Part shown: piece by piece, positions 1,115 through 33,172 of the stretch
Layout: every line of letters begins with the position of its first letter
How positions within the stretch are numbered: the first letter of the stretch is position 1
NCBI GenBank assembly: GCA_013298125.1
Contig: JAAFJP010000046.1
Location: 1 to 37,661, forward strand
Direction of reading: 5' to 3'
Length of the DNA: 37,661 nucleotides
Source of the DNA: Cytophagales bacterium
GTDB lineage: Bacteria > Bacteroidota > Bacteroidia > Cytophagales > Spirosomataceae
Translations under genes and position numbers: made by a program
The notes under the pieces: generated by a model
What the model was told of the DNA's origin: nothing
Seen by the model: only the letters and a program-made list of their open reading frames with translations
Databases searched by the model: none

Positions 1115-1232
1115 GAGAAAAGTTGAAGAGTTATAGAAGTTGAAAAGTTAAAGAGTTGTAGCTGAGTTTTTACTTCAAAACTGTTTAGCTTTATAGCTTC
1201 TGTAACTGTTTAACTTTTACAAATTCTAACTC
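1115..1232. repeat. Intergenic inverted repeat, word AGTTGAAGAGTT
   Basis: Directly after the hydrolase stop, arm 1117-1165 consists of imperfect tandem copies of AAAGTTGAAGAGTTATAGAAG-like words, and arm 1177-1230 is its imperfect complement. Many of the arm differences are transitions that would still pair as G.U in plus-strand RNA. No clean T-run follows, so a classical terminator is not obvious. It is one of the word-repeat hairpins in this window. Confidence 0.7.
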
Positions 1233-1294
1233 AAAAAGTAATTTTGGCACGGCTTTTTCGTTGTAAATTACATATATAAAAAGCTCATTGCTCC

Positions 1295-1492
1295 ATGAAA
1301 AAGCTCATTCTTTTATTCATCATTTTTTCGGCTTTCCAAGTAGAAACCGAGGCTATGAATACTGTTTCAAATAAAAATACGACCATTTCTACCGCTTCAT
1401 TAGAGGTAAAAACAGTCGTAAAACGTCGCCGTAAAAAAGGTTTTCTTTGGGGATTGTTTAAGAAAAAAGACTGCGGTTGTCCGAAGCATTGA
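1295..1492 (+). CDS. Small exported basic peptide, 65 aa
   Basis: Function not recognised. The 65-aa product starts with a short signal peptide (MKKLILLFIIFSAFQ), has a Ser/Thr-rich middle, then a strongly basic segment (KRRRKKGFLWGLFKKK) and ends DCGCPKH. The mature part would be about 45 residues with two cysteines spaced Cys-x-Cys. I recall similar basic, GFLWGLF-type tails with a terminal Cys-Cys-Pro pattern in small Bacteroidota proteins, but cannot verify this. The sequence TAATTTTG at 1239-1246 fits the -7 promoter element TAnnTTTG, with only a weak -33 element upstream, giving a 5' leader of about 40 nt. The stop codon touches the repeat that follows. Confidence 0.65.
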   Translation: MKKLILLFIIFSAFQVETEAMNTVSNKNTTISTASLEVKTVVKRRRKKGFLWGLFKKKDCGCPKH

Positions 1493-1691
1493 TTAGTTAT
1501 TGGTTTATTGGAAACTGGTTAATTGGTTTATTGGAAAACTGGTTATTCGGGTTCTTCCGAATAATCCAATGTTTAATCAACCAGTTCCTCAATAAACCAA
1601 TCAACCAGTTCCCAGTAAACCAATCAACCATGTCCCAATCAACCAGTTCCCCAATCAACCAATCAACCAGTTCCCAGTAAACCAATAACTA
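1491..1691. repeat. Long inverted repeat, word TTGGTTTATTGGGAACTGG
   Basis: Fills the whole gap between two convergent genes. The left arm (1494-1555) repeats TTGGTTTATTGG and AACTGGTTAATTGG; the right arm (1562-1689) carries about eight imperfect copies of the complement, such as CCAATCAACCAGTTCC. The right arm is longer, so several alternative hairpins are possible. The stop codon of the minus-strand PhyH gene lies inside the arm. The same word family returns at 33059-33172. Confidence 0.85.
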
Positions 1692-2504
1692 AACCAAAGG
1701 ATTAATCTCAGAAGCTGCCAAACTACCTACTGGCAAGCCCTTAAACCATCTCATACGATCTGCTTCTTGGTTTTTGTTTTTGGGTTCAGTGATTGTTGCT
1801 CCGTCTTCTATGAAAATAATCGTCATAACTTCTCGCAGTGTATCTGAGTGATTGCCTGGGGCTGAGTGCAAAGTCCAACCTGCATGGAAGGTTGCATCAC
1901 CCGCCTGCATCACCTCCGCCCGTGTGATGGGATAGCCTTTATCTTTCACAATATTTCCTAAAACTTCTTCTGACTTATCCGAAATCTCCAAATTACCCAT
2001 AAAGCCCAATTCCTGCGAACCAGAGGCAAAAGTGAGCATTCCCATTTCTACGGAAATATCTACCAACGGCATCCACATCGTAACCGTTTTTTTAGTTTCG
2101 AGAGGCCAATAATACTGGTCTTGATGCCAAGGCGTATGACCTCCGCCCGCTTCTTTAAACAAGGCTTGGTCGTGGTAAATTCTTACTTTTTCAACACCCA
2201 ATAAATCAGCCGCAATCTTCCCAAAACGTTTTGCCAAAGTAAACTTACGTACATCTTCATCGACCTCCCAAAGATTCATAATTTGTAAAAAAGCCTTTCC
2301 GTAGGTATCACGGTCTTCCATTTTACGTTTTTCAGTATTGAATCTGTCGGCAGCATCCACAATCACTTGGCGATAGGCTTCGGCTTCATCTTGATTAAGA
2401 ATATTTCTCAACAAAATATGTCCATTTGCCTGATAATCAGCTTGTTGCTGTTCGGTAATTGTATAGTTTTGTGTTAGCTCTGGTAATTCAGTTATTGTAT
2501 TCAT
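1689..2504 (-). CDS. Phytanoyl-CoA dioxygenase (PhyH) family protein
   Basis: Fe(II)/2-oxoglutarate-dependent oxygenase of the PhyH family, 271 aa, full length for the family and probably cytoplasmic (no signal peptide). The iron ligands are visible: WHQDQ gives His127 and Asp129, and the distal ligand is His213 in WTLHSAPGNHS, followed by Arg224, the likely 2-oxoglutarate contact. Family members hydroxylate diverse small molecules; the substrate is not predictable. It is divergent from an AraC-type regulator at 2841, the usual sign of a regulator-target pair, although a mobile element now sits between them. The last codons and TAG stop (LV-stop) are formed by the arm of the adjacent repeat. 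Confidence 0.9.
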   Translation of the reverse strand: MNTITELPELTQNYTITEQQQADYQANGHILLRNILNQDEAEAYRQVIVDAADRFNTEKRKMEDRDTYGKAFLQIMNLWEVDEDVRKFTLAKRFGKIAADLLGVEKVRIYHDQALFKEAGGGHTPWHQDQYYWPLETKKTVTMWMPLVDISVEMGMLTFASGSQELGFMGNLEISDKSEEVLGNIVKDKGYPITRAEVMQAGDATFHAGWTLHSAPGNHSDTLREVMTIIFIEDGATITEPKNKNQEADRMRWFKGLPVGSLAASEINPLV

Positions 2505-2605
2505 CGTTTAAATTTTGTTTAATAGTAAATATTTCACAAAGTAATTCATTAGTTTTCAGATACTTATTGTCATTTTTTGCCATTTTTTGTGCAATTTTAT
2601 CATTG

Positions 2606-2833
2606 TTAAAGGTTTTAGGGGTTAGGAGTTGGAGATTAAGTGTTTTAAGTAGTCGAATGTAAATAAACATCGTTTATTTTTTTACCACAAAAGAATCAAA
2701 AGAAAACAAAGTATTTATTCTTTAAACTATTGATACCTTTTGATTCTTTTGTGTTTCAAAAAAACGTTGTTTAAATTGTGTGAACTACTTAATCTACTTC
2801 CCTAATCCCTAATCCCTAACCCCCAATCCCTAC
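2606..2833. repeat. Inverted repeat, word GGGGTTAGG, split by a MITE
   Basis: Outer arms 2611-2645 (TTAGGGGTTAGGAGTTGG) and 2793-2832 (CCCTAATCCCTAATCCC) are imperfect complements. The same word makes up the repeat at 4322-4412, where the arms are close together, so the element here appears to have been interrupted by the 142-bp MITE in its centre. It lies upstream of both divergent genes. Confidence 0.7.
2646..2791. mobile_element. MITE with IS630-like ends and TA flanks
   Basis: Element 2648-2789 flanked by TA at 2646-2647 and 2790-2791. The left end reads AGTAGTCGAATGTAAATAAA; the reverse complement of the right end starts AGTAGTTCACA and again reaches AAACAACGTTT, so the termini are imperfect inverted repeats of about 30 bp. 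An inner perfect 17-bp inverted repeat pairs 2686-2702 with 2737-2753. There is no room for a transposase. The left end closely matches the DNA at 37539-37574 just before a probable transposase gene, which suggests mobilisation in trans by that insertion sequence. The TA duplication is typical of IS630/Tc1 elements. Confidence 0.72.
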
Positions 2834-2840
2834 TTTTTGC

Positions 2841-3701
2841 ATGAAAGCCTCGTTTGAACAATTAGACAACTCCAAAGACGGTTCATTTTTATTCCGCCAA
2901 TTTAACCTTGCATATTTTGATGCTCCATATCATTTTCATCCAGAATTTGAGCTGACCCTTATACTGAAAAGCGAAGGAAAACGTTTTGTAGGCAATCAAG
3001 TAGCTGATTTCAAAGAAGGCGACTTGGTGCTGTTGGGTCCAAACGTACCGCATTGTTGGAAAAACGATGGCATTGGAATTGAAAACTCTTCAAGGTCGAT
3101 TGTGATTCAGTTCAAGGAAGATTTTTTGGGGGATAAATTCTTTGAAAACATTGAAACACAGCCTATTAAATCCCTGTTGGACAAAGCAAAATCAGGTATT
3201 TTGATTTCTGGAAAAACAAGAGATAGAGTTGCCCGTGAAATGATATTTTTATTGACCGTACCACCCTTTCAAAAGCTCTTGGGTATCTTGGATTTATTGA
3301 ACACCATTGCCACCTCAAAAGATATTGAAATAATTGATAATCAGCCAGATAAGTACGATTTGTCAGCCATCGACTTAGACCGAATTAATAAGGTGTATGC
3401 CTACGTAATTGAGCATTATACGCAAGATATTCACTTAGAAACGGCAGCTCATTTGACCAATATGACCGAGACCGCTTTTTGTAGATATTTCAAGAAAATT
3501 ACGAAAAAAACGTTCTTAGATTTAGTTACCGAATTCAGAATCAAACACGCTTGTAACCTCCTCACAACCAGCGACAAACAAGTAGCCGAGGTATGTTTTG
3601 AGAGTGGTTTTGGTAATATTTCACATTTCAACAAACAGTTTAAAGTTTTTACAGGATATAGCCCTCTGAACTATCGGAAGATGTTTTTAGCGACGATTTG
3701 A
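2841..3701 (+). CDS. AraC family transcriptional regulator with cupin domain
   Basis: 286 aa. The N-terminal half is a cupin-like sensor domain (HFHPEFELTLI near residue 35, then GDLVLLGPNVPHCW); the C-terminal third, about residues 180-283, is the double helix-turn-helix of the AraC family (ETAAHLTNMTETAFCRYFKK, then VAEVCFESGFGNISHFNKQF). Such proteins usually sense a small carbohydrate-type ligand and activate neighbouring genes. The divergent PhyH gene at 2504 is the obvious candidate target. The start ATG is preceded by the CCCTAA-type repeat arm with no Shine-Dalgarno sequence. Its stop codon overlaps the -33 element of the promoter for the next gene. Confidence 0.92.
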   Translation: MKASFEQLDNSKDGSFLFRQFNLAYFDAPYHFHPEFELTLILKSEGKRFVGNQVADFKEGDLVLLGPNVPHCWKNDGIGIENSSRSIVIQFKEDFLGDKFFENIETQPIKSLLDKAKSGILISGKTRDRVAREMIFLLTVPPFQKLLGILDLLNTIATSKDIEIIDNQPDKYDLSAIDLDRINKVYAYVIEHYTQDIHLETAAHLTNMTETAFCRYFKKITKKTFLDLVTEFRIKHACNLLTTSDKQVAEVCFESGFGNISHFNKQFKVFTGYSPLNYRKMFLATI

Positions 3702-3728
3702 GGATGATGTTATATTTTGTAAATTTGC
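3698..3728 (+). promoter_or_regulatory. Bacteroidota-type promoter TTTG-N19-TAAATTTG
   Basis: TTTG at 3698-3701 and TAAATTTG at 3721-3728 separated by 19 nt match the Bacteroidota sigma consensus TTTG...TAnnTTTG exactly. The start of the secreted protein at 3774 is about 40 nt after the expected transcription start. The -33 element overlaps the AraC stop codon. Confidence 0.6.
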
Positions 3729-3773
3729 ACTTCTTGCCAAATAATATACAAACAACCATAAAATATAGAATTC

Positions 3774-4319
3774 ATGAAATCATTAAGTATTGCTTTACTA
3801 TTTTCATTACTGATTACAATTACTTTCTCTTCTTTCAAATCCCAACCCACGAGCGTTATTGAAGATGAAGATTACGATACGCTTAACTTCCAATCCATGA
3901 ATGTTTCGGGCATAAAATTGGGAACAAACTACGGTAAAGTTTTAGAAAAATTCGGTACTCCCGACTCTGTACGCAAAGAGGAAACCCCTGATGCTCAGGC
4001 TTCTAACCATTTTGAAGTCTATATTTATGGCAAAGATCACTTCTTTGTAATGGATGATAATATAAGTGGTTTTGAATTAACAACTCCCAAATACGTACTC
4101 GAAAACTTAGGAGGTTTGAAAGTGGGTGACCCAATGTCAAAAGTGAAAAAGCGTTTCCCAAAATCATACAAACTCCGTGATGTAGATAATACTGTTGATG
4201 ATTGGGTTACTACGGTAAGCGTACAGTTTGGCGTAAGTGATTCATTTTTAGAAATCACCGTTCAAAACGATAAAGTTGTGGGATTGGCTACAGTAACGGA
4301 CGATGGGACGGAGGAGTAA
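3774..4319 (+). CDS. Secreted protein with two small BLIP/SmpA-like repeats
   Basis: 181 aa, no firm family assignment. A signal peptide (MKSLSIALLFSLLITITFSS) points to export. Two internal repeats are visible: GIKLGTNYGKVLEKFGTPDS around residue 46 and GLKVGDPMSKVKKRFPKSYK around residue 114, each followed by strands of a small alpha/beta module. This pattern (G-hydrophobic-G-x3-V-x4-G or P) is that of the SmpA/OmlA and beta-lactamase-inhibitor-like fold, so a periplasmic binding or scaffolding role is possible but unproven. It has a consensus promoter at 3698-3728 and is probably monocistronic, ending at an inverted repeat. Confidence 0.75.
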   Translation: MKSLSIALLFSLLITITFSSFKSQPTSVIEDEDYDTLNFQSMNVSGIKLGTNYGKVLEKFGTPDSVRKEETPDAQASNHFEVYIYGKDHFFVMDDNISGFELTTPKYVLENLGGLKVGDPMSKVKKRFPKSYKLRDVDNTVDDWVTTVSVQFGVSDSFLEITVQNDKVVGLATVTDDGTEE

Positions 4320-4321
4320 AA

Positions 4322-4412
4322 GGTGGTTAGGGGTTGGGATATAGGATGTGGGGATTTTTACTCCAAACACTAAATTCCAACCCCTAATTCCTAACCCCTA
4401 TACCTAAAATCA
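4322..4412. repeat. Inverted repeat, word GGTTAGGGGTTGGG
   Basis: Arms 4325-4358 (GGTTAGGGGTTGGG...GTGGGG) and 4364-4402 (CCAACCCCTAATTCCTAACC) are imperfect complements between convergent genes. Same word family as 2606-2833. The right arm runs into the DUF3291 gene and encodes its last residues and TAG stop. Confidence 0.8.
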
Positions 4413-4828
4413 AAAGCAAACTCACTTGCTCCATTTGCTTGAAAATACTCTAATCTTCCACGGGCTTCTTGAACCGTTGGAATATGCCCTTCTTCTACAT
4501 TCCAAAGCACCGTTGAGGGCTTTCCGAATTTTTCAAACCACTTGTTACGGTCTTTCATCACTACGGCATGGGCAGATTTATAGGCAAAATCCATCAATTC
4601 CTCCACAGATTCCCAGACAGACATATTTACGATAATCCTATCATCATCGAATGGGCGTAGATTAGTAGCATTGCCTGCATCATCTTTCAGTCGCCAAACG
4701 AAGCCTTTACTACTTTCTGCCAAAGCGTTTATCGTATCTAATTGAGCCACAAAATCAGCCATGATGGGGTCTTCCATCGTTTCTGGAATAATTCTGGAAA
4801 TGTTTAATTGAGCTAAATGTTTTTTCAT
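4391..4828 (-). CDS. DUF3291 domain-containing protein
   Basis: 145 aa, a DUF3291 protein with a dimeric alpha/beta-barrel-like fold. I take the internal ATG at 4828 (MKKHLAQLNISR) as start rather than the longer open frame from 4936, because family members begin here and the upstream residues would overlap the divergent DUF456 gene. Typical family features are the N-terminal AQLNISR strand, DIVNMSVWESVEELMDF-type segment (here NMSVWESVEELMDFAYKSAH) and the late WNVEEGHIPTVQEA. The function of the family is not known; related folds are small monooxygenases. The final codons YRG and the stop come from the adjacent repeat arm. Confidence 0.83.
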   Translation of the reverse strand: MKKHLAQLNISRIIPETMEDPIMADFVAQLDTINALAESSKGFVWRLKDDAGNATNLRPFDDDRIIVNMSVWESVEELMDFAYKSAHAVVMKDRNKWFEKFGKPSTVLWNVEEGHIPTVQEARGRLEYFQANGASEFAFDFRYRG

Positions 4829-4889
4829 AAATCTAATTTTGTTTACTTGCACAAGATAAGAAATGTTTTGAAATAAATCCCAAACCCAT

Positions 4890-5384
4890 ATGACTGATAT
4901 ACTTCTATTAATTGGCTCAATAATTTGCCTCCTCATAGGCTTGGCAGGGGCGGTACTCCCTTTACCTGGACCACCTATTAGTTTGATTGGGCTATTTATG
5001 TTACACTATTCAAAATACGCTCAATTTGACCGTAAAACGTTGATTTTCTTTACCTTACTAACCGTAGGCATGAGCATATTCGACTACTACGCACCCATCT
5101 GGGGAACTAAGAAATTTGGTGGGACAAAATACGGTTCTTGGGGTTCAACGATTGGGCTTTTGTTAGGGCTTTTCTTTACCCCAATCGGAATGTTTTTGGG
5201 GGCATTTCTCGGGGCATTTATTGGTGAAATTTTGGGTAAGACTGAACCAAAAGTAGCCCTGAAAGCCGCCATTGGCTCTTTTATTGGACTGATTACTGGA
5301 ATTGTTGGAAAAGTTCTTTTGTGTTTGGCGATGATTATTTTGGCAGTGATGGCTGTTGGGGAATATTTTATGATAATGGGGTAG
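4890..5384 (+). CDS. DUF456 integral membrane protein
   Basis: 164 aa, a DUF456 family membrane protein with about five hydrophobic segments. Family features are the N-terminal PLPGPPISLIGL motif around residues 24-36 and the glycine-rich helices GLLLGLFFTPIGMFLGAFLG and AAIGSFIGLITGIVGK, which resemble glycine-zipper packing. No catalytic residues are evident and the function is unknown. It is divergent from the DUF3291 gene with only 61 nt between the starts, so the promoters must be compact; TAATTTTG at 4835-4842 could be its -7 element, without a good -33 partner. Confidence 0.87.
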   Translation: MTDILLLIGSIICLLIGLAGAVLPLPGPPISLIGLFMLHYSKYAQFDRKTLIFFTLLTVGMSIFDYYAPIWGTKKFGGTKYGSWGSTIGLLLGLFFTPIGMFLGAFLGAFIGEILGKTEPKVALKAAIGSFIGLITGIVGKVLLCLAMIILAVMAVGEYFMIMG

Positions 5385-5386
5385 AG

Positions 5387-5487
5387 TAGGATACTGTAGC
5401 TCGAAGAGTGCGACTCCCGATAGCATTTCGAGAAGAGTAGAATAACTGTACTCAGCTTCTCGAAATGCCATTTCGAGCTACAGTACA
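5387..5487. repeat. Inverted repeat between convergent genes, word TTCGAGCTACAGTA
   Basis: TACTGTAGCTCGAA at 5392-5405 pairs with 5472-5485, and an inner pair GCATTTCGAGAAG (5423-5435) with 5456-5468. Each stem is perfect, giving a nested hairpin of about 95 nt. It separates DUF456 from rlmN and its right end encodes the last residues and TAG stop of RlmN. Confidence 0.85.
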
Positions 5488-6536
5488 ACAGGTGCTTTCT
5501 TCCCCGCCAACTGCCCACAAGCCGCATCAATGTCCTTTCCCCGTGAACGACGGACGTTTACAATCATATTTTTGGCTTCTAAAAACGCCGCAAACTTTGC
5601 TAAGGTTTGTGGGTCGGTATTGGTATAATTTGCTTCTGCAATTGGGTTATACTCGATAATATTTATCTTGCAAGGAAACTGTTTGGCAAATTCCCAAAGC
5701 TCACGGGCATCTTCTAAGCTATCGTTAAATTTATAAAAAAGGATATATTCCAACGTGATACGACTACCCGTTTTTCTATAGAAATGTAATAACGATTCTT
5801 TCAAAGCCTCCAAAGTATTCGACTCGTTGATGGGCATAATTTCGTTGCGTTTCACGTCATTGGCAGCGTGTAGAGATAGTGCCAAATTGAACTTCACTTC
5901 ATCATCCCCCAACTTCGTAATCATCTTCGCAATTCCTGCCGTTGAAACCGTAATCCGCTTAGGCGACATTCCCAAACCTTCGGGAGATGTGATATAATTG
6001 ACTGATTCTAAGACATTTGCATAATTCAATAACGGTTCGCCCATACCCATATACACGATGTTGGTGAGGGGAGTTTGATAGTGAGATTCCGCCTGGTCAC
6101 GGATTCTGACTACTTGGTCGTAGATTTCGGCAGGGTCGAGGTTACGCTTTCTGTCCATGTAGCCCGTTGCACAAAATTTGCACGTGAGCGAGCAACCCAC
6201 CTGCGAGGATACACAGGCAGTCATGCGGTCATCGGCAGGAATCAATACGCCTTCGACCAAATTTTTATCGAATAATTCAAAGGAAGATTTGATAGTACGG
6301 TCTGTACTGACCTGTTTCTCAGCCACTTTCACCGCTCGAATTTCAAAATGTTCAGCTAATAATTCACGGGTTTTCAAGGAAAGATTAGTCATTTCCTCAA
6401 AACTCTGCACCGACTTTTTCCAGAGCCATTCATACACTTGTTTCGCTCTGAATGCCTGTTCTTTATGTTCCGTCAAAAACTCTTTGAGTTGAGTGATTGA
6501 CTGTTTGCGTATATCTTTTTTGACGTTAATCAGCAT
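5478..6536 (-). CDS. rlmN: Dual-specificity RNA methyltransferase RlmN
   Basis: Radical SAM enzyme that methylates C2 of A2503 in 23S rRNA, and in some bacteria A37 of certain tRNAs. 352 aa, normal length. The CxxxCxxC iron-sulfur motif is Cys115, Cys119 and Cys122 (GCSLTCKFCATG), the SAM-binding segment YMGMGEPLLNY follows near residue 160, and the methyl-carrying cysteine is Cys340 in DAACGQLAGK near the C-terminus. All catalytic cysteines are present, so it should be active in the cytoplasm. The stop codon is provided by the adjacent inverted repeat. A terminator-like hairpin lies at 6550-6584, just upstream of the start, isolating it from the TonB-domain gene. Confidence 0.97.
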   Translation of the reverse strand: MLINVKKDIRKQSITQLKEFLTEHKEQAFRAKQVYEWLWKKSVQSFEEMTNLSLKTRELLAEHFEIRAVKVAEKQVSTDRTIKSSFELFDKNLVEGVLIPADDRMTACVSSQVGCSLTCKFCATGYMDRKRNLDPAEIYDQVVRIRDQAESHYQTPLTNIVYMGMGEPLLNYANVLESVNYITSPEGLGMSPKRITVSTAGIAKMITKLGDDEVKFNLALSLHAANDVKRNEIMPINESNTLEALKESLLHFYRKTGSRITLEYILFYKFNDSLEDARELWEFAKQFPCKINIIEYNPIAEANYTNTDPQTLAKFAAFLEAKNMIVNVRRSRGKDIDAACGQLAGKKAPVVL

Positions 6537-6549
6537 AATTTATCTCGAC

Positions 6550-6584
6550 AAAAAAAGAGCAAAGATGGATGTCTTTACTCTTTT
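6550..6584 (-). terminator. Hairpin with T-run between TonB-domain gene and rlmN
   Basis: On the minus strand AAAAGAGTAAAGA pairs with TCTTTGCTCTTTTTTT around a CATCCA loop and runs into a T-stretch. It should end the transcript of the TonB-domain gene just before rlmN, only about 14 nt from the rlmN start. Confidence 0.65.
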
Positions 6585-6696
6585 GGGTTTTGAGATTGTA
6601 AAATTACGAAGAAATAATCGTGCAATCAAACATAATGTTATTGTATTGATAATCAGTTGATTGATTTTTTGATGTATTGGAATTATGCTATTTTAT

Positions 6697-8202: not shown

Positions 8203-8265
8203 AAAAAGAGGGCGTTTTCTTATTTGGATTTGAACAATGACCCAAATTAAGAAAACTCCCTCTTT
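8203..8265 (-). terminator. Long hairpin and T-run touching the next start codon
   Basis: On the minus strand AAAGAGGGAGTTTTCTTA pairs with TAAGAAAACGCCCTCTTT (one mismatch in the stem) and is followed by TTTTT then ATG of the TonB-domain gene. It lies downstream of the Fe-S protein gene and probably terminates that transcript, but might also hide the next start codon. Confidence 0.7.
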
Positions 8266-8287
8266 CTAACAAATATTATCAAAATTT

Positions 8288-13475: not shown

Positions 13476-13489
13476 GGGAGGGTAGGTTT

Positions 13490-13586
13490 TTAATAAGTGA
13501 TAAGTGATGAGTGATAAGTGATAAGTTAAAGAGTGGTAAAATTATCAACCACTTATAACTTATCACTTATAATTTATCACTCAAAA
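13490..13586. repeat. Inverted repeat, word AAGTGATAAGTGATAAG
   Basis: Arm 13496-13531 holds about five tandem AGTGATA words; arm 13549-13581 is the complement (ACTTATCACTTATAA). It begins right after the ftsQ stop and lies just upstream of the ftsA start, so in the minus-strand transcript it forms a hairpin between two co-directional division genes. Confidence 0.85.
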
Positions 13587-13588
13587 AC

Positions 13589-18019: not shown

Positions 18020-18041
18020 CTTTTGTGGTTTTATGTTCGTA

Positions 18042-18152
18042 TGTGATTGGTAATTAGTGATTGATAATTAGAAAATGGAAGACCTATTTATGAATTACAA
18101 ATGTTTGAAATTTCTTAACAACTAATCACTAATTACCAATCACTAATTACTG
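18042..18152. repeat. Inverted repeat, word GGTAATTAGTGATT
   Basis: Arm 18044-18071 (GATTGGTAATTAGTGATTGA) pairs with 18120-18151 (two TAATCACTAATTACCAATCA-type words). Unlike most others here it lies between divergent genes, in the presumed promoter region of both, so it cannot simply be a 3' terminator. Confidence 0.82.
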
Positions 18153-18190
18153 AATAACAAAATTACATCATCTTTTAAATGTTATCAACA

Positions 18191-18853
18191 ATGAAGACTA
18201 AAATAAATTCCTTGATTCTTGGAATAGTTACATTATTCACAAGTGTATCATGCGGTCAAAAGACTGAAAATCAGAAAATTAGCAAAAAAATGAACGAAGA
18301 AAAAGTCAATATGGCAGACATGGAAACTGTTACCTTTGGGGCAGGTTGTTTTTGGTGCGTTGAAGCCGTTTTTCAACAAATAGAGGGCGTTGTGAAAGTA
18401 GAATCTGGATATTCTAACGGACAAGCCAAAAAGCCAACGTACAGAGAGGTATGTACGGGTAATACGGGCTGTGCAGAGGTTGTACAGGTAACTTTCGACC
18501 CTAAGAAAGTATCTTTTGATACAATTTTGGAGATATTCTGGAAAACTCACGACCCAACAACCTTGAATCGTCAAGGGGCAGATGAAGGGACACAATATCG
18601 TTCGGGCGTATTTTATCACAACGAGGCTCAAAAAGCATCGGCGGAGGCATGGAAGAAAAAACTGAATGACGAACACGTTTTCCCGAACCCAATTGTTACA
18701 GAAATTACGGCAGTTGCCAACTATTCACCAGCGGAAGACTATCACCAAGATTATTATGCTCTGAACGGTCATAATCCTTATTGTCAGGTAGTTATCAAAC
18801 CTAAAATGGATAAATTACAGAAGACTTTTAAGGATAAATTGAAAGTTCAATAA
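18191..18853 (+). CDS. msrA: Exported peptide-methionine (S)-S-oxide reductase MsrA
   Basis: Repairs methionine-S-sulfoxide in proteins. 220 aa from the ATG at 18191; an ATG four codons earlier (18179) is possible but weakens the signal peptide. The N-terminus (MKTKINSLILGIVTLFTSVS then Cys21) looks like a lipoprotein signal, although the lipobox is not canonical, so the enzyme is probably tethered in the periplasm. The catalytic motif GCFWC gives Cys53 as the attacking cysteine; GTQYRSGVF, AVANYSPAEDYHQDYY and NPYCQVV are standard family motifs. The C-terminal cysteine in YCQV could be the resolving residue. It precedes dsbD on the same strand, which could supply its electrons. Confidence 0.95.
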   Translation: MKTKINSLILGIVTLFTSVSCGQKTENQKISKKMNEEKVNMADMETVTFGAGCFWCVEAVFQQIEGVVKVESGYSNGQAKKPTYREVCTGNTGCAEVVQVTFDPKKVSFDTILEIFWKTHDPTTLNRQGADEGTQYRSGVFYHNEAQKASAEAWKKKLNDEHVFPNPIVTEITAVANYSPAEDYHQDYYALNGHNPYCQVVIKPKMDKLQKTFKDKLKVQ

Positions 18854-18999
18854 CAGTAATTTACGGTACACGGTAACTTACGGTACACGGTAAAGGGTAA
18901 ACGGTACACGGCAAAACAAAGAATAATTCTGAGTACAACCGTGTACCGTTCACCCTCTACCGTAAATTACCGTGTACCGATAATTACCGTTATCCGAAA
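18854..18999. repeat. Inverted repeat, word TTACGGTACACGGTAA
   Basis: Starts directly after the msrA stop. Arm 18861-18919 has four copies of ACGGTACACGG or shorter forms; arm 18939-18997 carries the complementary CCGTGTACCG words. The hairpin is imperfect and can pair in several registers. It separates msrA from dsbD; the remaining gap to 19148 is plain AT-rich DNA. Confidence 0.85.
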
Positions 19000-19148
19000 T
19001 TTTTTGTTAATTTTGTTAATCAAAATATTTAATCTCAATGTTTATTCGTTTCCTTACAAAATAACCATTAATTGAACCATTAGAAAATGAATAATAGACA
19101 AACAAAATTATTCTCTGTTATCTATTCTCTAAAATTACCCATCTTCAA

Positions 19149-22638: not shown

Positions 22639-22664
22639 TGTGTTATTAGATTTAAGATTAAATT

Positions 22665-22750
22665 TTCAATGCTCAATGTCCAATGCTCAACTTTCAAGGT
22701 AAAAACTACATGAAAATTGAACATTGAAAGTTGAGCATTGAAAATTACTT
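22665..22750. repeat. Inverted repeat, word TCAATGCTCAA
   Basis: Arm 22667-22699 (TTCAATGCTCAATGTCCAAT and following) pairs with 22714-22747 (AACATTGAAAGTTGAGCATT). It sits between two co-directional minus-strand genes, after comA and before dedA. Stem nearly perfect for its inner 20 bp. Confidence 0.85.
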
Positions 22751-22790
22751 TTAATTTTTATCTATGATTCCTACTAAATCTATGTGATTA

Positions 22791-24221: not shown

Positions 24222-24325
24222 TTGAAGATGTGCTAATTTGAAAATTTGATAATGAAACAAAAGCGTTCATGCCAAATTTTCAAATTAACCAATTTTCAAG
24301 CGGTTCGCCGCCCGATTTCAAATTA
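24222..24325. repeat. Inverted repeat, word CTAATTTGAAAATTTG, with UUCG hairpin
   Basis: Arm 24222-24249 (two TAATTTGAA words) pairs with 24272-24288 (CAAATTTTCAAATTA, 15 bp perfect) and with TTTCAAATTA at 24316-24325. Near the end GCGG-TTCG-CCGC (24300-24311) forms a mini-hairpin with a UUCG tetraloop. It separates the DUF2147 gene from tetR. Confidence 0.8.
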
Positions 24326-26926: not shown

Positions 26927-26963
26927 CTCTCGTACTACCCAAATTTACAAAAAATATTACGGA

Positions 26964-27093
26964 CGTGCCACGGTTTGCGTAGGATTTGTGCGGGAGACCG
27001 TGGCACGTCTGGGAGTGGATTTATGCAATCAAACAAATCTGCGTTCCAAGCGTGCCACGGTCTCTCACGCAACCCTACGCAAACCGTGGCACG
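26964..27093. repeat. Pair of inverted 44-bp palindromic elements (CGTGCCACGGT)
   Basis: Copy one, 26964-27007 (44 bp), and copy two, 27051-27093 (43 bp, opposite orientation), both begin CGTGCCACGGT and end with ACCGTGGCACG. Each is a hairpin by itself, and the two copies can pair with each other at about 36 of 43 positions. It is GC-rich, unlike its surroundings, and lies in the transcribed gap between the TolC and membrane fusion protein genes. Confidence 0.9.
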
Positions 27094-27147
27094 CTGACCA
27101 GAGAGATTTAAAATTTATCGAAATAATAAGTTAAAATTACTTTAAAC

Positions 27148-28188
27148 ATGAAAAAAATATCCATTCTCTATTTCCTAATCATCTCATTATTAATGAGTTG
27201 TGGAAAGAAAAAAGAACCAAAAAAAGCCTTAATCGAAGATGACATCGTGGCGGTGAAATTAGTTGATGTCTATCAGGCAAACTCTACCGATGCCCTCAAA
27301 GCCTCGGGTTTGGTAGCCTCTTTGGAAGAAGCCCGTTTGTCGTTCAAAACGGGTGGAATCATTGAAAAAATTTATGTAAAAGAAGGTCAGAACGTTCACA
27401 AAGGGCAATTATTGGCAACCTTGAATCTCACAGAAATCAACGCCCAAGTCCAACAAGCGACTGAAAGTGTACAAAAATCTGAGAGAGATTTGAAGCGGGT
27501 TACCAACCTTTACCGTGATTCTGTCGCCACTTTGGAACAAGTCCAAAACCTCACCACCGCCCTCAACGTAGCGAGACAATCCTTAGAAATTGCGAGTTAT
27601 AATCAAGGATATTCCAAAATTTATGCCTCAGCTAATGGCGTGATTGTCAAGAAGTTGATGAATGAAGGCGAACTCGCTGGACCGGGAATGCCCGTATTTT
27701 TCATGAACGCCTCGGGAGCAAATGACTGGGTGATGAAGGTTGGCATTGCCGACAAAGACTGGACTCGCCTACACGTGGGAGACCGTGCGAGTGTGAAATT
27801 GGATGCTTTTCCAGAAGCAATTTTCTCGGCTACAATTTCCAATCTTTCACAAGGGGCAGACGTAAATTCTGGTTTGTATCAGGCGGAGTTAAAATTGAAT
27901 ACGCAAGGTAAAAAAATGGCTACGGGTTTATTCGGAAATGCTCAAATTATACCCTCAGTTATCCAGAAACACACTTCTATCCCGATTGATGCTGTCGTGG
28001 AAGGCAACGGTGATGAGGCTTTTGTGTATGTAGTTTCAGAAGGAAAGGCACGCAAAATGCCAATTAAATTAGTTGGAATTGATAACACAAGGGCTTTTGT
28101 GGCAAGCGGTTTGGCGGGCATTACGCAGGTGATAACGGACGGGTCAGCTTATTTGGTGGAGGGGAGTAAGGTGAAGGTTGTGAAGTAA
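27148..28188 (+). CDS. RND efflux membrane fusion protein (lipoprotein)
   Basis: 346 aa periplasmic adaptor of the HlyD/AcrA type. The lipobox LLMSC (Cys15 or so of MKKISILYFLIISLLMSCGK) indicates a lipid-anchored form. The lipoyl-like halves are SFKTGGIIEKIYVKEGQNVH and YASANGVIVKKLMNEGELAG, flanking the helical hairpin LTEINAQVQQATESVQKSER; beta-barrel and membrane-proximal domains follow (TGLFGNAQIIP, AVVEGNGDEAFVYVV). It connects TolC and the RND pump. The preceding 221-nt gap contains the palindromic repeat pair, the following 201-nt gap another repeat. Confidence 0.93.
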   Translation: MKKISILYFLIISLLMSCGKKKEPKKALIEDDIVAVKLVDVYQANSTDALKASGLVASLEEARLSFKTGGIIEKIYVKEGQNVHKGQLLATLNLTEINAQVQQATESVQKSERDLKRVTNLYRDSVATLEQVQNLTTALNVARQSLEIASYNQGYSKIYASANGVIVKKLMNEGELAGPGMPVFFMNASGANDWVMKVGIADKDWTRLHVGDRASVKLDAFPEAIFSATISNLSQGADVNSGLYQAELKLNTQGKKMATGLFGNAQIIPSVIQKHTSIPIDAVVEGNGDEAFVYVVSEGKARKMPIKLVGIDNTRAFVASGLAGITQVITDGSAYLVEGSKVKVVK

Positions 28189-28197
28189 AAATGTTTG

Positions 28198-28378
28198 AAA
28201 ACGGTCATTGTGAGTGAAGAAATAAAAAATATTAAAATGGCTGTCATTGCGAGCGAAGCGAAGCAATCTGTTGGATTGATGGAGATAAGTTTGAAAGAAA
28301 AACCTTTGTTCTTTTGAGCTTACAGTCTATTTCTCATAAGCAAACAGATTGCTTCGCTTCGCTCGCAATGACAGCTTT
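28198..28378. repeat. Perfect 33-bp inverted repeat (GTCATTGCGAGCGAAGCGAA)
   Basis: Arm 28240-28272 and arm 28343-28375 are exact complements over 33 bp around a 70-nt loop. A decayed third copy GGTCATTGTGAGTGAAGAA starts at 28205. I recall the TCATTGCGAGCGAAG word as a common intergenic repeat of many unrelated bacteria, but cannot check here. It lies between the membrane fusion protein and RND genes. Confidence 0.92.
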
Positions 28379-28389
28379 CAAGCATCATT

Positions 28390-31300
28390 ATGAAAATCTC
28401 TGAATTCTCAGTAAAAAATTACCAATTCACCTTAGTTGTGTTTTTGGGAATATTATCAATTGGTATTTTCTCTCTCTTGAATATGCCACGTGGCGAAGAC
28501 CCTGAGTTTTCGTCGCCTCAGTTTGGTGTTACCGTCATTTACCCAGGGGCTTCTCCCAAGGACGTGGAAGAACTCGTGGCGGATGTTGTGGAAAAACGCC
28601 TCAATGAATTGGACAATATGAACCGTGTCCGTAGTACCATCGTGGACGGGGCTGCCATTTTTCAAGTCGAGTATGATTTTGAGGTAAATCCCGAAGAAAA
28701 ATATCAGGAAGTTGTTCGTGAAATGAACGCTGTACGCAAGGATTTACCCGCTGATGTCTTGGACGTTCGGATTGAAAGATACCAACCCGATGGCGTAAAT
28801 ATCTATCAATTTGCTCTTGTTTCTGAAAATTTACCTTACAATAAATTAGAAAAATATGCCGACGATTTTGAGAAACGTTTAGAGAAAGTTTCAGCTTTAA
28901 AAAACATCAAATCGTGGGGATTTCCGAAACGTAAAATTTCGGTAGAATTGAATTTGAGTAAATTAGCACAAGATAAAATACCGCTCAATCGTGTCTTAGG
29001 GGCTATTCAGTCTGAAAATGTAAATATTCCAGGCGGTTCAATTAATCTTTCTTCCAAAAAATTTAACGTCAAAACTTCGGGAAATTATAAAGATATTGAC
29101 GAAATAAAAAACACGATTGTCTTCTCGAATGGAACAAAAATCGTCCTACTCCGAGACATTGCCGAAGTAAAATACGCCTACGAAGACGAGTCACACAAAA
29201 CCCGTTTGAACGGACACAGAAGCGTATTTGTAACAGCTTGTCAGAAGTTTGGGCAGAACATCATCAAGGTACGTTCACAGGCTGATCCCATCGTAGAAGA
29301 ATTTAGAAAAACGCTTCCTCCATCAGTTGATTTAGTCAAAGTTTTCGACCAAGCGGAGTCTGTACAAAAGCGTTTGGCACGTTTTGCCAAAGATTTTGCC
29401 ATCGCTATCTTGTTGGTACTCATCACTTTATTGCCTCTGGGTTCACGGGCGAGTTTGGTCGTGATGATTTCGATTCCCCTTTCGTTGGCTATCGGATTGG
29501 CACTTTTATATGCCCTGGGTTTTACGATAAATCAACTTTCTATCGTCGGAATGATTGTAGCTTTGGGGATTTTGGTGGATGATTCTATCGTAGTCGTTGA
29601 AAATATTGAGCGATTTATCCGCAAAGGTATTCCCAAAAAACAAGCCGCCATCGAGGCTACCAGTCAAATTAGCGTTGCCGTGATTGGTTGTACAATTCTT
29701 TTGATTTTTGCCTTTTTACCCGTGGCTAATTTGCCAGAAGCCGCTGGTAAATTCATCCGAAGTTTACCAATGGCGGTGTCCGTAACGGTCTTTGCTTCGA
29801 TGATTGTTGCCCTCACGATTGTTCCGTTTTTATCAAGTGTTTTACTAAAAAATCACGAAAATCCAGAGGGAAATTTTATTCTGAGAGGCATGAAAAAATT
29901 GATTTCAGCCACTTACGGAAAGTTGATGACTTGGTGCTTGAAACATCCAAAAACTACACTGGCTCTGTCTGTTGCTGTTTTTGCAGGTGTTATGTTTATG
30001 GCAAAACTATTCTTAGGTTTCTCACTTTTCCCAACGTCCGAGAAACCCATGTTCCTCGTGAACGTGAGTACGCCCGTGGGGACGAACCTACAAACAACTG
30101 ACAATGTGGTGCGTTTTGTGGAAACAGAATTGAAGAAAGTTCCTGAGATCAAGAACATTGCCGCCAATATCGGAAGGGGAAATCCACGGATTTATTACAA
30201 CATCATCGGAGGACCAGAAGTAGAGAATTCGGGACAACTTTTTGTGTTGTTGGAAGACATGGAAACGAAGGATAAAAAGGAGATTATCAATCAGTTGAGG
30301 GATAAATTTATGAATTATCCCAACGCCAAAATTGAGGTAAAAGACTTTGAACAAGGACCACCTCTGGAAGCCCCATTAGCGTACAGAATTTTCGGAAACA
30401 ACTTGGATAGTCTCAAAAAGGAGGCTGGGCGAGTGGAGAAAACCTTAGCCGACCAACCTGGCACAATTTACGTAGAAAACCCACTAAAAGTACAACCAAC
30501 CGACTTTCGGACAATAATCAATCGTGAAAAAGCGGGACTTTTAGGCGTAAATATTTCGGATATTGACCGTGTGGTTCGTTTGGGAGTAGCGGGTATAAAT
30601 ATCGGGACATTCAGAGAAGAAGGGCAAACGGACGACTACAATATCAACGTTTCAATTCCACGAAGCAATACAAAACAGGATTTGAGTGTATTTGATAATA
30701 TATTCGTCAATAACGTGATGGGAACTGCCATTCCGCTAAAACAATTGGTTGAGGTAAAATTTGAAACTTCGCCAACCCAAATTCGACATTTCAATAAAGA
30801 ACGTTACGTAACGATTACCGCTTTTTTGAAATCAGGATTTAACACGGCGGTTGTCAATCAGGAACTTATCAAAAAGTTAGATAAGTTCAAATTCTCGAAA
30901 GGATTTTCGTATAAAGTGGCGGGTGAGGCAGAAAATGCAGAAAAATCTTTCGGAGGCTTAGGGGTAATCATTATGATAACTGTCTTCGGAATGATAGCTA
31001 TCCTAATTTTGGAATTTGGCAACTTCAAATCTACCTTAATTGTGCTTTCAGTAATCCCGCTGGGCATTGTGGGAGCAATTTTAGGACTTTTGATTGCAGG
31101 AGAGACATTAGGATTTACGTCCATCATCGGGTTCATCGCATTGATAGGTATTGAGATTAAAAACTCACTCCTTTTGGTCGATTTCACGAATCAGTTACGA
31201 GAAGAAGGCATGGGACTTGACGAAGCCATCCACGAAGCTGGGGAAGTCCGTTTCGTACCAATTTTATTGACCTCATTTACGGCAATTGGCGGTATGCTTC

Positions 31301-31449
31301 CTTTGGTTTTGGAATACTCAGATTTGTATTCGCCCTTGGCAATTGTCTTGATTGGCGGTATCACGAGTTCGACCTTATTGGCTCGCTTAGTTACGCCCGT
31401 GATGTACAAATTATTGCCACCCAAAGTTATTGTAAAAGTACAATCCTAA
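28390..31449 (+). CDS. RND family efflux permease
   Basis: 1019 aa, full length for the inner membrane pump of a tripartite efflux system. N-terminal TM1 (TLVVFLGILSIGIFSLLNMP), porter domain with PGASPKDVEELVADVVEKRL, then TM2-6 including the proton-relay aspartates Asp397 and Asp398 in LVDDSIVVVENIERF, a second porter and funnel domain and TM7-12 (LVVLSVIPLGIVGAILGLLI-like segments, and GIEIKNSLLLVDFTNQLREE). The GVTVIYPGAS and DDSIVVVEN motifs are typical of hydrophobe/amphiphile exporters; heavy-metal type residues were not recognised. Co-directional with TolC and fusion genes, under TetR control. Exported substrate unknown. Confidence 0.95.
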   Translation: MKISEFSVKNYQFTLVVFLGILSIGIFSLLNMPRGEDPEFSSPQFGVTVIYPGASPKDVEELVADVVEKRLNELDNMNRVRSTIVDGAAIFQVEYDFEVNPEEKYQEVVREMNAVRKDLPADVLDVRIERYQPDGVNIYQFALVSENLPYNKLEKYADDFEKRLEKVSALKNIKSWGFPKRKISVELNLSKLAQDKIPLNRVLGAIQSENVNIPGGSINLSSKKFNVKTSGNYKDIDEIKNTIVFSNGTKIVLLRDIAEVKYAYEDESHKTRLNGHRSVFVTACQKFGQNIIKVRSQADPIVEEFRKTLPPSVDLVKVFDQAESVQKRLARFAKDFAIAILLVLITLLPLGSRASLVVMISIPLSLAIGLALLYALGFTINQLSIVGMIVALGILVDDSIVVVENIERFIRKGIPKKQAAIEATSQISVAVIGCTILLIFAFLPVANLPEAAGKFIRSLPMAVSVTVFASMIVALTIVPFLSSVLLKNHENPEGNFILRGMKKLISATYGKLMTWCLKHPKTTLALSVAVFAGVMFMAKLFLGFSLFPTSEKPMFLVNVSTPVGTNLQTTDNVVRFVETELKKVPEIKNIAANIGRGNPRIYYNIIGGPEVENSGQLFVLLEDMETKDKKEIINQLRDKFMNYPNAKIEVKDFEQGPPLEAPLAYRIFGNNLDSLKKEAGRVEKTLADQPGTIYVENPLKVQPTDFRTIINREKAGLLGVNISDIDRVVRLGVAGINIGTFREEGQTDDYNINVSIPRSNTKQDLSVFDNIFVNNVMGTAIPLKQLVEVKFETSPTQIRHFNKERYVTITAFLKSGFNTAVVNQELIKKLDKFKFSKGFSYKVAGEAENAEKSFGGLGVIIMITVFGMIAILILEFGNFKSTLIVLSVIPLGIVGAILGLLIAGETLGFTSIIGFIALIGIEIKNSLLLVDFTNQLREEGMGLDEAIHEAGEVRFVPILLTSFTAIGGMLPLVLEYSDLYSPLAIVLIGGITSSTLLARLVTPVMYKLLPPKVIVKVQS

Positions 31450-31595
31450 AATTTCAGAGAATCTTAATATGGATGATTGAGATTTAAGGTTATTTAACAA
31501 TAATTATTAAAATATAACTTTTTAATGACACTAATTTTGAATTATTGTCGTTTAATCAATCACAAACATTGTCAAATCTTTAAATTCTCAGAACA

Positions 31596-31844
31596 ATGAA
31601 ATTCAACACCAGTACACTGACACAATTTTTATCACGGAATTTTTATATAAATCCGAGATTGATAGCTCCCCAAAAACGCTTTTATGCCGATTTGGGTATG
31701 AACTCTTTGGAGTTTTTGGAAGTAGTAGTTTATTTAGAGAACACGTACGGAATCACTTTGCCAGACAATGAGATAGATAAAATTCAGACAATCAGACAGT
31801 TATCTGAATTGATGGAAGCGAATTTAGAAATGGCAGAGGCATAA
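31596..31844 (+). CDS. Stand-alone acyl carrier protein
   Basis: 82 aa with the phosphopantetheine attachment motif LGMNSLEFLE; Ser37 is the attachment site. The residue before it is Asn instead of the usual Asp of the DSL motif. The remaining helices (VVVYLENTYGITLPDNEIDK, IQTIRQLSELMEANL) fit the four-helix ACP fold. It is likely not the housekeeping ACP, which in most bacteria lies next to fabF; no synthase or transferase gene is adjacent, so its pathway is unknown. It starts 147 nt after the RND gene and ends in a terminator at 31986-32026. Confidence 0.86.
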   Translation: MKFNTSTLTQFLSRNFYINPRLIAPQKRFYADLGMNSLEFLEVVVYLENTYGITLPDNEIDKIQTIRQLSELMEANLEMAEA

Positions 31845-31985
31845 TAGAGACAGTAAATAGTGTGAAATATGGATTAAAAAAGGTAGGTTCTATAATGATT
31901 TTTCTTAAAAATCCAAACAGTGAATACCGAATGGCTGCATAAGTTAATTCACAGTTCACGGTTAGTTTAAGAAATATTAGTCGTT

Positions 31986-32026
31986 AAAAAAGGGTTGTTT
32001 CAAATAATTTGAGACAACCTTTTTTA
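31986..32026 (+). terminator. Terminator after the acyl carrier protein gene
   Basis: AAAAAAGGGTTGTTTCAAAT pairs with ATTTGAGACAACCTTTTTT with short mismatches; the T-run is evident. Probably functional in both directions. Confidence 0.82.
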
Positions 32027-32084
32027 TTTGCTGAAATAATTGTCCTATATTCACTTATTCATTCAACAATCTCTTATTATCATT

Positions 32085-33059
32085 ATGAAAGCTGTACTTT
32101 GCAAAACTTATGGACCTCCCGAAAGCCTTGCGGTTGAGGATGTTGCGTCTCCCGTTGCCTCAAAAGGGAAGGTCGTTATCAGCGTAAAAGCCTGTGGCGT
32201 TAATTTCCCTGATACCTTAATTATTCAAGGGAAATACCAAATCAAACCGCCCATGCCTTTTTCGCCAGGTGGTGAAGTGGCTGGAATTATCAAGGAAGTA
32301 GGGGAGGGGGTAGAACATCTGAAAGTAGGCGATAAAGTATTTTCCTTGACTGGCTTTGGAGGTTTTGCCGAAGAAGTGGAGGCAGATGCCAAAACCACCC
32401 TCAAAATGCCCGAAGGACTGGATTTTATTACAGCTTCATCTGTAATGTACACCTACGGAACGTCATATCATGCTCTCAAGAATAGAGCTGAGTTGAAGGC
32501 TGGTGAAACTTTGTTGGTCATGGGTGCAGCGGGTGGCGTTGGACTGGCGGCGGTTGAATTAGGCAGAATCATGGGAGCAAAAGTCATTGCGGCAGCTTCT
32601 ACGGATGAAAAATTGGAACTTTGTAAAAAATACGGAGCATCGGAAGTTATCAATTATTCGACACAAGATTTAAGGGAACGTATAAAAGAAATCACGGGTG
32701 GTAAGGGCGTAGATGTGATTTATGACCCTGTGGGAAGTGCCTATACCGAACCCGCTTTCCGCTCTATTGCTTGGAAAGGGCGTTATTTGGTGATTGGCTT
32801 TGCGGCTGGGGATATTCCAAGTTTACCTTTGAATTTGGCTTTATTGAAAGGTGCATCAATCGTGGGTGTATTTTGGGGAGCATTTGCCGCCAACGAACCC
32901 AAAGAAAGTATGCAGAATTTTAAGGAGCTTTTAGGCTTCATCGCCCAAGGAAATTTGAAGCCTCATGTACACGCACAATATTCGCTCGAACAGGCATCGG
33001 ATGCACTCTACGAAATGCTGAATCGGAAGGTGATGGGGAAGGTGGTTGTGGTTGTTTAG
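32085..33059 (+). CDS. NADPH:quinone oxidoreductase (zinc-free MDR family)
   Basis: 324 aa from the ATG at 32085 (MKAVLCKTYGPPESLAVEDV), the usual family start; the frame is open 45 nt further upstream. Medium-chain dehydrogenase/reductase fold: N-terminal GroES-like domain with CGVNFPDTLIIQGKYQIKPP and PGGEVAGIIKEVGEG, then a Rossmann domain with VMGAAGGVGLAAVELGR and VDVIYDPVGSAY. The zinc ligands of alcohol dehydrogenases are absent, fitting quinone oxidoreductases (Qor/zeta-crystallin type). It probably reduces quinones or enones with NADPH. The Val-rich end runs straight into an inverted repeat. Confidence 0.92.
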   Translation: MKAVLCKTYGPPESLAVEDVASPVASKGKVVISVKACGVNFPDTLIIQGKYQIKPPMPFSPGGEVAGIIKEVGEGVEHLKVGDKVFSLTGFGGFAEEVEADAKTTLKMPEGLDFITASSVMYTYGTSYHALKNRAELKAGETLLVMGAAGGVGLAAVELGRIMGAKVIAAASTDEKLELCKKYGASEVINYSTQDLRERIKEITGGKGVDVIYDPVGSAYTEPAFRSIAWKGRYLVIGFAAGDIPSLPLNLALLKGASIVGVFWGAFAANEPKESMQNFKELLGFIAQGNLKPHVHAQYSLEQASDALYEMLNRKVMGKVVVVV

Positions 33060-33172
33060 GAATTGGTTACTGGTTTATCGGTTTACTGGTTTATTGGGAG
33101 CTAAAAATCATTTTCCAGTTTCCCAATAAACCAATAAACCAATAAACCAGTAAACCAGTAACCAATAACGAA
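33060..33172. repeat. Inverted repeat, word TGGTTTATCGGTTTACTGG
   Basis: Arm 33061-33102 (GGTTACTGGTTTATCGGTTT) pairs with 33118-33168 (CCAATAAACCAATAAACCAG). Same word family as the repeat at 1491-1691, and again between convergent genes. Confidence 0.88.

What the first reader, a model, noticed from the sequence alone, without database searches (positions are those of the whole stretch)
1115..33172. Word-built inverted repeats in about a dozen intergenic gaps, most with a different word
Seen: arms made of imperfect tandem copies of a short word, complemented in the other arm, at 1115, 1491, 2606, 4322, 5387, 13490, 18042, 18854, 22665, 24222 and 33060, plus the cleaner inverted repeats at 26964 and 28240. 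Words differ between most loci (TTGGTTTATTGG, GGGGTTAGG, AGTGATA, ACGGTACACGG and others), though two families occur twice. They lie in convergent, co-directional and divergent gaps. Ordinary terminators with T-runs exist separately at other sites, so terminators are not the whole explanation. Inference: an unknown process builds or maintains these hairpins, or they have an RNA-level role such as mRNA end protection.
Basis: partly seen in the sequence, partly recalled or inferred. Interest (0 to 1): 0.7.

Follow-up and report, generated by a model that had tools for sequence, protein, structure and literature searches.

The report
Mirrored seven-letter-word hairpins after genes
In this bacterial genome many gaps between genes hold long DNA hairpins built from repeats of a 7-8 letter word, usually starting right after a gene's stop codon, and in several gaps sister species have a hairpin made of a different word; the pattern resembles a little-studied kind of repeat known from cyanobacteria, and how it arises is unknown.

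Summary
The window has 14 inverted repeats (IRs) scoring >=34 (11 of the 13 listed, plus 3 others), against 1 in 3 shuffles and 0 in 20 more. An unbiased 400 kb of the genome has 90 against 2. The loci are of several kinds: word-built hairpins, palindromic repeats (5387, 26964) and a clean dispersed repeat (28240).

Word-built arms pair in register (0.86 against 0.64 shifted). Intergenic DNA has a 7-8 bp period. In co-directional gaps hairpins start a median 3 nt after the upstream stop. No T-tract follows. The G-richer word is mostly in the 5' arm: 15:4 in unbiased own slices, 21:5 in loci of other named genomes.

Of 53 species pairs with an IR of any class in the same gap, arms are alike in 20 and unlike in 33; of 23 word-word pairs, 11 and 12. 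Stem changes are mostly one-sided; sense G.U is not favoured.

Best reading: near-perfect mirrored copies born at DNA level, tolerated at gene ends, decaying and replaced; akin to cyanobacterial heptamer (STRR) hairpins. An RNA role is not excluded; no mechanism is shown.

The parts
1118..1218 (.). word hairpin AGTTGAAGAGTT/AAAGTTG, 3 nt after stop of the dienelactone-hydrolase-like gene
   Evidence: score 40, 0 of 200 shuffles
1493..1692 (.). word hairpin TTGGTTTATTGG, fills the convergent gap to phyH; a second, inner copy of the 3' arm lies at 1579-1624
2615..2826 (.). nested: outer GGGGTTAGG-type hairpin (weak counterpart in G004), inner CACAAAAGAATCAAAAG-type repeat at 2677-2762
4327..4387 (.). 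TTAGGGGTTGGG hairpin filling a convergent gap (weakest of the set)
   Evidence: score 26, p 0.005
5392..5485 (.). palindromic repeat TACTGTAGCTCGAA../..TTTCGAGCTACAGTA in convergent gap to rlmN; not word-built
   Evidence: relatives elsewhere in genome
13493..13581 (.). AGTGATAAGTGATGAG word hairpin in the ftsQ-ftsA gap
18024..18167 (.). GTGATTGGTAATTAGTGATTG word hairpin in the divergent pap2/msrA gap
18842..19002 (.). ACGGTACACGGTAAACGGT word hairpin starting at the msrA stop
22645..22761 (.). TTTCAATGCTCAATGTCCAATG word hairpin (a C-first exception to the polarity)
24222..24299 (.). AATTTGAAAATTTG word hairpin 1 nt after the DUF2147 gene stop
26964..27093 (.). palindromic REP-like pair CGTGCCACGG...
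28240..28375 (.). clean inverted pair of the dispersed repeat TGTCATTGCGAGCGAAGCGAAGCAATCTG
33060..33172 (.). TTGGTTTACTGG word hairpin filling a convergent gap; relatives have CAGT-word arms (G002, G004), CAGT-word arms around a terminator (G005, G007) or a terminator-like hairpin (G006, weak in G003)

Best explanation
These are intergenic snap-back repeats built largely from heptad/octad words. Shown: arms paired in register, word periodicity, location just after stop codons, a G-word-first polarity, mostly one-sided decay, and unlike words in sister species at some of the same gaps. Inferred: each hairpin is born at DNA level, when a short tandem word array next to a gene end is copied in inverted form in one step (fold-back or template-switch synthesis; why G/T-rich strands should be favoured is unknown, G.T self-pairing or transcription-linked R-loops being possible). 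It is tolerated where it interrupts neither a coding sequence nor a promoter, i.e. just after stops. It then decays by ordinary mutation and is lost or replaced by another array. Once transcribed it should form a strong mRNA 3'-end hairpin (median predicted energy -47 kcal/mol), which may affect mRNA ends, but I found no clear sign of selection on its sequence or pairing.
For: Far above shuffles. In-register pairing 0.86 against 0.64 for the best shifted register, higher in 98 of 101 (the IRs were found by that register, so the test leans that way). Period 7-8 in intergenic DNA and 237 core-tetrad chains against 2.9 shuffled. Start a median 3 nt after the upstream stop against 44 nt before the next start; 49 of 60 closer to the stop. 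Polarity G:C 86:12 of 101 over all slices (partly biased), 15:4 of 20 in unbiased own slices and 7:1 of 10 in 32 other genomes, 21:5 of 26 in 113 loci of other named genomes, 17:1 by similarity group. No sense G.U excess; one-sided stem changes dominate. Unlike arms at the rlmN gap between G005 and G007, whose aligned blocks are 87% identical.
Against: Recurrence of the same words at many loci and in many phyla is not explained by independent birth. Most such arrays in other genomes are not in an IR: 60 of 80 listed TTGG loci and 10 of 13 CAGTTAT places. IR presence in a gap is correlated between species even when arms differ (18 of 40 against 3 of 26, p=0.006), although without divergent gaps this falls to p=0.11. 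Of 8 both-sided changes 7 keep pairing (reciprocal counts), which hints at some selection. No birth event was seen: the closest pair of genomes compared was 91% identical.
Confidence: 0.45

Rival explanations
1. RNA-level 3'-end hairpins kept by selection for 'any strong hairpin here' (block 3' exonucleases, separate convergent transcripts, or separate cistrons as in ftsQ-ftsA), with sequence free to change.
For: Position right after stops and convergent enrichment; same-gap presence with unlike arms; very stable predicted fold; word arms surround a conventional terminator in G005 and G007.
Against: No sense-strand G.U preference (81 against 111); little compensation; 22 of 47 orthologous gaps lack a significant IR; within ftsQ-ftsA only own and G004 (0 of 200) and, weakly, G005 (score 21, p 0.02) stand out of six species with a scored IR, G007 having none; some lie in divergent gaps.
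Confidence: 0.3
2. Non-autonomous mobile hairpins moved by IS200/IS605-type or RAYT HUH transposases, like REPs/REPINs, each word being a family.
For: Own genome has five Y1_Tnp matches, two of them adjacent; those in L119 and L120 (IS200/IS605 family) and L121 (REP-associated) lie beside palindromic IRs, and the AACGAGGGGT type of L120 resembles dispersed IRs of the same genome. Word families are dispersed; some share an outer end, such as TGTCTGAATCAGGATT.
Against: None of the five transposase loci, seen with about 1.5 kb on each side, is flanked by a word hairpin; members of the TTGG group share a word but, by eye, no common ends or arrangement. The palindromic class shows no polarity (21:22 of 46) and no convergent preference, unlike the word class.
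Confidence: 0.15
3. Unusual intrinsic terminators.
For: Convergent enrichment; 7 of 29 gaps with a word IR also hold a terminator-like hairpin, and 11 of 114 senses have >=7 T in the 12 nt after the 3' arm.
Against: After the 3' arm 3.5 T per 12 nt on average, below the plain IR class (4.3); ordinary T-run terminators exist separately.
Confidence: 0.04
4. Chance or low-complexity artefact.
For: Genome is AT-rich (37% GC).
Against: Shuffles; seen in independent genomes.
Confidence: 0.01

Closest known systems
Cyanobacterial short tandemly repeated repetitive (STRR) heptamer sequences
   Same: 7-bp tandem units in intergenic DNA, able to form hairpins, close to a gene's 3' end in the hoxW case; function not known, proposed transcript stability, translational coupling or termination (PMC2670836, passages). 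[quoted passage not shown]
   Different: Here long mirrored arms, many words per genome, a G-first polarity, and turnover measured across seven species of one genus that I take for Bacteroidota. 250 kb of a Trichormus variabilis plasmid showed no word IR, so like-for-like behaviour was not shown.
TAACTGA direct repeats of Beggiatoaceae, Cyanobacteria and five Bacteroidetes (PMC4679880; passages and section 12 read)
   Same: The heptamer TAACTGA is one of the words here, e.g. ATCAGTT arrays next to ftsA in G005 and G007.
   Different: In the main genome of that paper reported as direct repeats (169 direct sets, one inverted), mostly just upstream of start codons; here inverted, mirrored and mostly after stops.
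REP/REPIN and GTAG/CGTC palindromes with RAYT/TIRYT transposases (PMC3733652; abstract, sections 8 and 16 read)
   Same: The palindromic class of this genome (GTAGGGGCGTATCGCATACGCCC and others) and palindromic IRs beside its HUH transposases.
   Different: Word hairpins have non-palindromic arms, tandem words, polarity, and no transposase neighbour among the five loci seen.

Membership tests
Cyanobacterial STRR | tandem ~7-bp units in intergenic DNA | tested here: met
Cyanobacterial STRR | can form hairpins | tested here: met
Cyanobacterial STRR | occurs in a cyanobacterial genome with the same units | tested here: inconclusive
   one 21-mer word string found in Phormidesmis (L144) without an IR; no word IR in 250 kb of a Trichormus plasmid
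REP/REPIN (RAYT-linked) | short palindromic unit with GTAG/CGTC tag | tested here: not met
   palindromic arms were put in a class of their own by rule, so the word class lacks them by definition; GTAG-tagged palindromes occur in the palindromic class, as read by eye
REP/REPIN (RAYT-linked) | same repeat flanks a RAYT gene | tested here: not met
   five Y1_Tnp loci, none flanked by a word IR within about 1.5 kb
Intrinsic terminators | T-tract directly after the stem | tested here: not met
   on average not; >=7 T of 12 in 11 of 114
Known structured RNA family | match to an Rfam model at gathering score | tested here: not met
   0 matches in the window
Selected RNA stem | compensatory changes or sense G.U preference | tested here: inconclusive
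   81 G.U against 111 A.C; 73 one-sided, 7 both-sided kept, 1 both-sided broken, reciprocal counts over eight gaps; few loci

The most novel reading that the evidence does not exclude
Many bacterial lineages carry an active, sequence-tolerant process that writes mirrored heptad-word hairpins at gene 3' ends, nearly always with the G-rich word first, so that the hairpin's place can last while its 'spelling' is overwritten on the time scale of speciation. The polarity points to one enzyme class or one DNA/RNA intermediate acting on the G/T-rich strand.
Probability: 0.2. Interest if true: 0.85.

Novelty: new variant of a known kind. Interest (0 to 1): 0.6.

Why it matters
The function of heptamer hairpins in cyanobacteria was called unknown in 2009 (PMC2670836, passages), and I found no later explanation in the searches made. 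Here the same design appears in another lineage with three measurable handles: polarity, in-register arms and word turnover at fixed gaps. That turns an old curiosity into a testable question about how bacteria make and lose hairpins at gene ends, and warns that hairpin presence at a gene end need not mean conserved RNA sequence.

Tried and rejected
Rfam scan: no match in the window. Terminators: largely rejected by T content. RAYT mobilisation of word hairpins: not supported by flanks; the transposases of L119 and L120 proved to be IS200/IS605 by NCBIfam and only L121 of the three scanned passes the REP-associated model. Sense G.U selection: not seen. Compensation: too few loci, and two of the eight gaps used are not clean word cases (28240 repeat; a weak IR at p24947/oep). 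Site preference beyond gap type: not established (p=0.11 without divergent gaps). Orientation of arrays outside IRs: 9 G-rich and 3 C-rich in sense, too few. Direct test in Cyanobacteria: only plasmid DNA was had, no word IR and two plain ones in 250 kb; a heptamer-like query found nothing in plasmids, perhaps because of the low-complexity filter. The word strings searched in the library's papers gave one unrelated hit. Literature searches (held library only; 6 to 25 papers listed each) showed no paper on such IRs in Bacteroidota, on the 28240 repeat, found 385 papers of which the 15 listed were unrelated. PMC3542288 was looked at in passages only and gave nothing. The tblastn search was only to find cyanobacterial plasmids and was not used.
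Full report
WHERE IT IS. The window is a whole contig of an unnamed 5.85-Mb genome, 37% GC. That it is a Bacteroidota is my inference from gene content and from the named genomes that share its words. Pfam scans of 20 of its proteins are.

CHECK. I wrote a gapped inverted-repeat finder (W-C pair +2, mismatch -3, gap -4, span <=260; G.T -1.5, and -3 from then on). The window has 14 IRs at score >=34, of which 11 are listed loci and three are not (8202, 19717, 37178); three dinucleotide shuffles had 0, 0 and 1 (recounted), and 20 further shuffles had none. Twenty unbiased 20-kb slices of the same genome have 90 against 2 in shuffles, 74 of the 90 mostly intergenic; twenty slices picked for the TTGG word have 124 against 0. 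Gap-wise shuffles confirm all 13 listed places (weakest 4322, p=0.005).

KINDS. With symmetric scoring, 80 slices and the window (own genome and six sister species, half of the own slices biased) gave 236 mostly intergenic IRs: 101 word-built (tandem score at or above the 95th percentile of shuffled arms, 8), 46 palindromic, 89 plain. Palindromic IRs also stand beside IS200/IS605 and REP-associated transposases. Of the window loci 26964 and 5387 are palindromic (5387 by eye) and 28240 is a clean dispersed repeat, which the rule counted as word-built. The rule also misses some: the GAATTAAG-type hairpin of G005 is classed plain.

ANATOMY OF THE WORD CLASS. Intergenic DNA as a whole has excess self-match at shifts 7 and 8 (0.314 and 0.316 against 0.290 and 0.288 shuffled) and again at 14-15 (biased slices included). 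Chains of at least four copies of a tetrad spaced 7 or 8 nt apart occur 237 times against 2.9 in shuffles (both strands and overlapping cores counted; unbiased own slices, window and relatives); of 600 neighbouring 7-mer unit pairs 422 are identical and 178 differ in the spacer. The arms pair in register at 0.86, best shifted register 0.64, in-register higher in 98 of 101; the IRs were found in that register, so the test leans towards it, but it shows that the arms are not interchangeable arrays. Because an IR reads alike on both strands, which word comes first is an inherent polarity: the 5' arm has more G than C in 86 and fewer in 12 of 101 (3 ties), while the palindromic class has 21 and 22 of 46. 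As the slices were partly biased, note 15:4 of 20 in the unbiased own slices and 7:1 of 10 (2 ties) in 40 slices from 32 other genomes, 21:5 of 26 in 113 loci from other named genomes with the search word's surroundings removed, 18 of 20 for the search word itself, and 17 of 18 similarity groups. The TCAATGTTCAA type (22665) is C-first.

POSITION. In co-directional gaps word IRs (n=60) start a median 3 nt after the upstream stop (quartiles -2 and 13) and end a median 44 nt before the next start; 49 of 60 are nearer the stop. Counts per gaps of >=60 bp are 60/407 co-directional, 27/109 convergent, 14/135 divergent. As a rule no T-tract follows (mean 3.5 T in 12; >=7 in 11 of 114), but in the unbiased own slices and window 7 of 29 gaps with a word IR also hold a terminator-like hairpin.

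TURNOVER. Orthologous gaps were taken from six sister species (matching DNA blocks mostly 74-87% identical); gaps that fell on different contigs or could not be bridged were left out. Examples: the rlmN gap has CTCGAA palindromes (own, G004), ACGGATT words (G003, G006), GAATGAAGAAC (G005), AGAGAATAG (G007). The 33060 gap has TTGG words (own), CAGT words (G004, G002), CAGT words around a conventional terminator (G005, G007), and a terminator-like hairpin (G006; weak in G003). The pap2/msrA gap has one kind in own, G005 and G007, another in G004, and short gaps without a significant IR in G003 and G006. Of 53 species pairs with a significant IR of any class in the same gap, 20 have arms more alike than 95% of different-gap arms and 33 do not; of the 23 pairs in which both are word-class, 11 are alike and 12 unlike, the unlike ones in six gaps. 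If own has an IR, 25 of 47 orthologous gaps do; if not, 3 of 26 (p=0.0004). Removing alike pairs leaves 18 of 40 against 3 of 26 (p=0.006), but without divergent gaps 17 of 34 against 3 of 13 (p=0.11), so a site effect beyond gap type is not established. Pairs share species and gaps, so these p-values are optimistic. G005 and G007, 87% identical in aligned blocks, have unlike arms at rlmN.

RNA OR DNA. Sense-strand mismatches in co-directional word IRs are 81 G.U and 111 A.C (convergent, + strand: 48 and 34): no wobble preference. In eight gaps with alike arms, counted reciprocally, stem pairs were 459 unchanged, 54 one-sided broken, 19 one-sided G.U, 7 both-sided kept, 1 both-sided broken, 69 gapped. 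Hairpins thus look born near-perfect and decaying, although the seven kept double changes are a counter-hint.

SPREAD. Word IRs are commoner in the own genome (20 in 400 kb) than elsewhere: 9 in 760 kb of 31 genomes of other genera and 1 in 40 kb of G001 (genes there were called with a model trained on the own genome, so the intergenic filter is loose for GC-rich genomes). Most of these arrays are plain: 20 of 80 lie in an IR, and 3 of 13 places of a CAGTTAT array. That CAGTTAT string occurs in 12 of 296 genomes of the phylum against 2 of 296 for the reversed control, and not in the own genome although two congeners have it.

KNOWN. Cyanobacterial STRRs are the nearest relative in kind, TAACTGA repeats share one word, and REPs resemble only the palindromic class. 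My searches listed no paper on mirrored, polarised word hairpins in this phylum; that holds only for the library and the lists seen.

VERDICT. Real, found in several lineages, and unexplained; a new variant of a known kind. The DNA-birth reading is my best guess, with an RNA role second.

Noticed in passing
28240-28375: Clean inverted pair of TGTCATTGCGAGCGAAGCGAAGCAATCTG; relatives elsewhere in own genome and at the same gap in G004. I recall similar repeats from distant bacteria; a paper search by string listed nothing related among 15 of 385 papers.
   Followed up: partly
2677-2762: CACAAAAGAATCAAAAG...CTTTTGATTCTTTTGTG repeat nested in the loop of another hairpin; copies elsewhere (L063 8824, L078 18133) look like a small mobile element with fixed ends.
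   Followed up: partly
L119 and L120 (IS200/IS605 type), L121 (REP-associated): Single-domain HUH transposase genes beside strong palindromic inverted repeats, one of which recurs elsewhere in the genome.
   Followed up: partly
33060-33172 orthologues in L097 (G005) and L091 (G007): CAGTTAGC word arms flank an intrinsic-terminator-like core shared by both species, as if words had been added around it.
   Followed up: partly
own genome, e.g. L043 6390, L051 5230, L061 9539: Group GGCACGCAGATGACGCAGAT..AACGCAGATTTTCGCAGAT with recurrent outer end; also GGCACACGGATT and CACAGAGAGCCACAGAG groups with words of about 10 bp rather than 7.
   Followed up: no
ftsQ-ftsA gap 13476-13588: A gap inside what is probably an operon where own and G004 carry hairpins of unlike words, G005 a weaker one (score 21, p 0.02), and the other relatives none that is significant.
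   Followed up: partly
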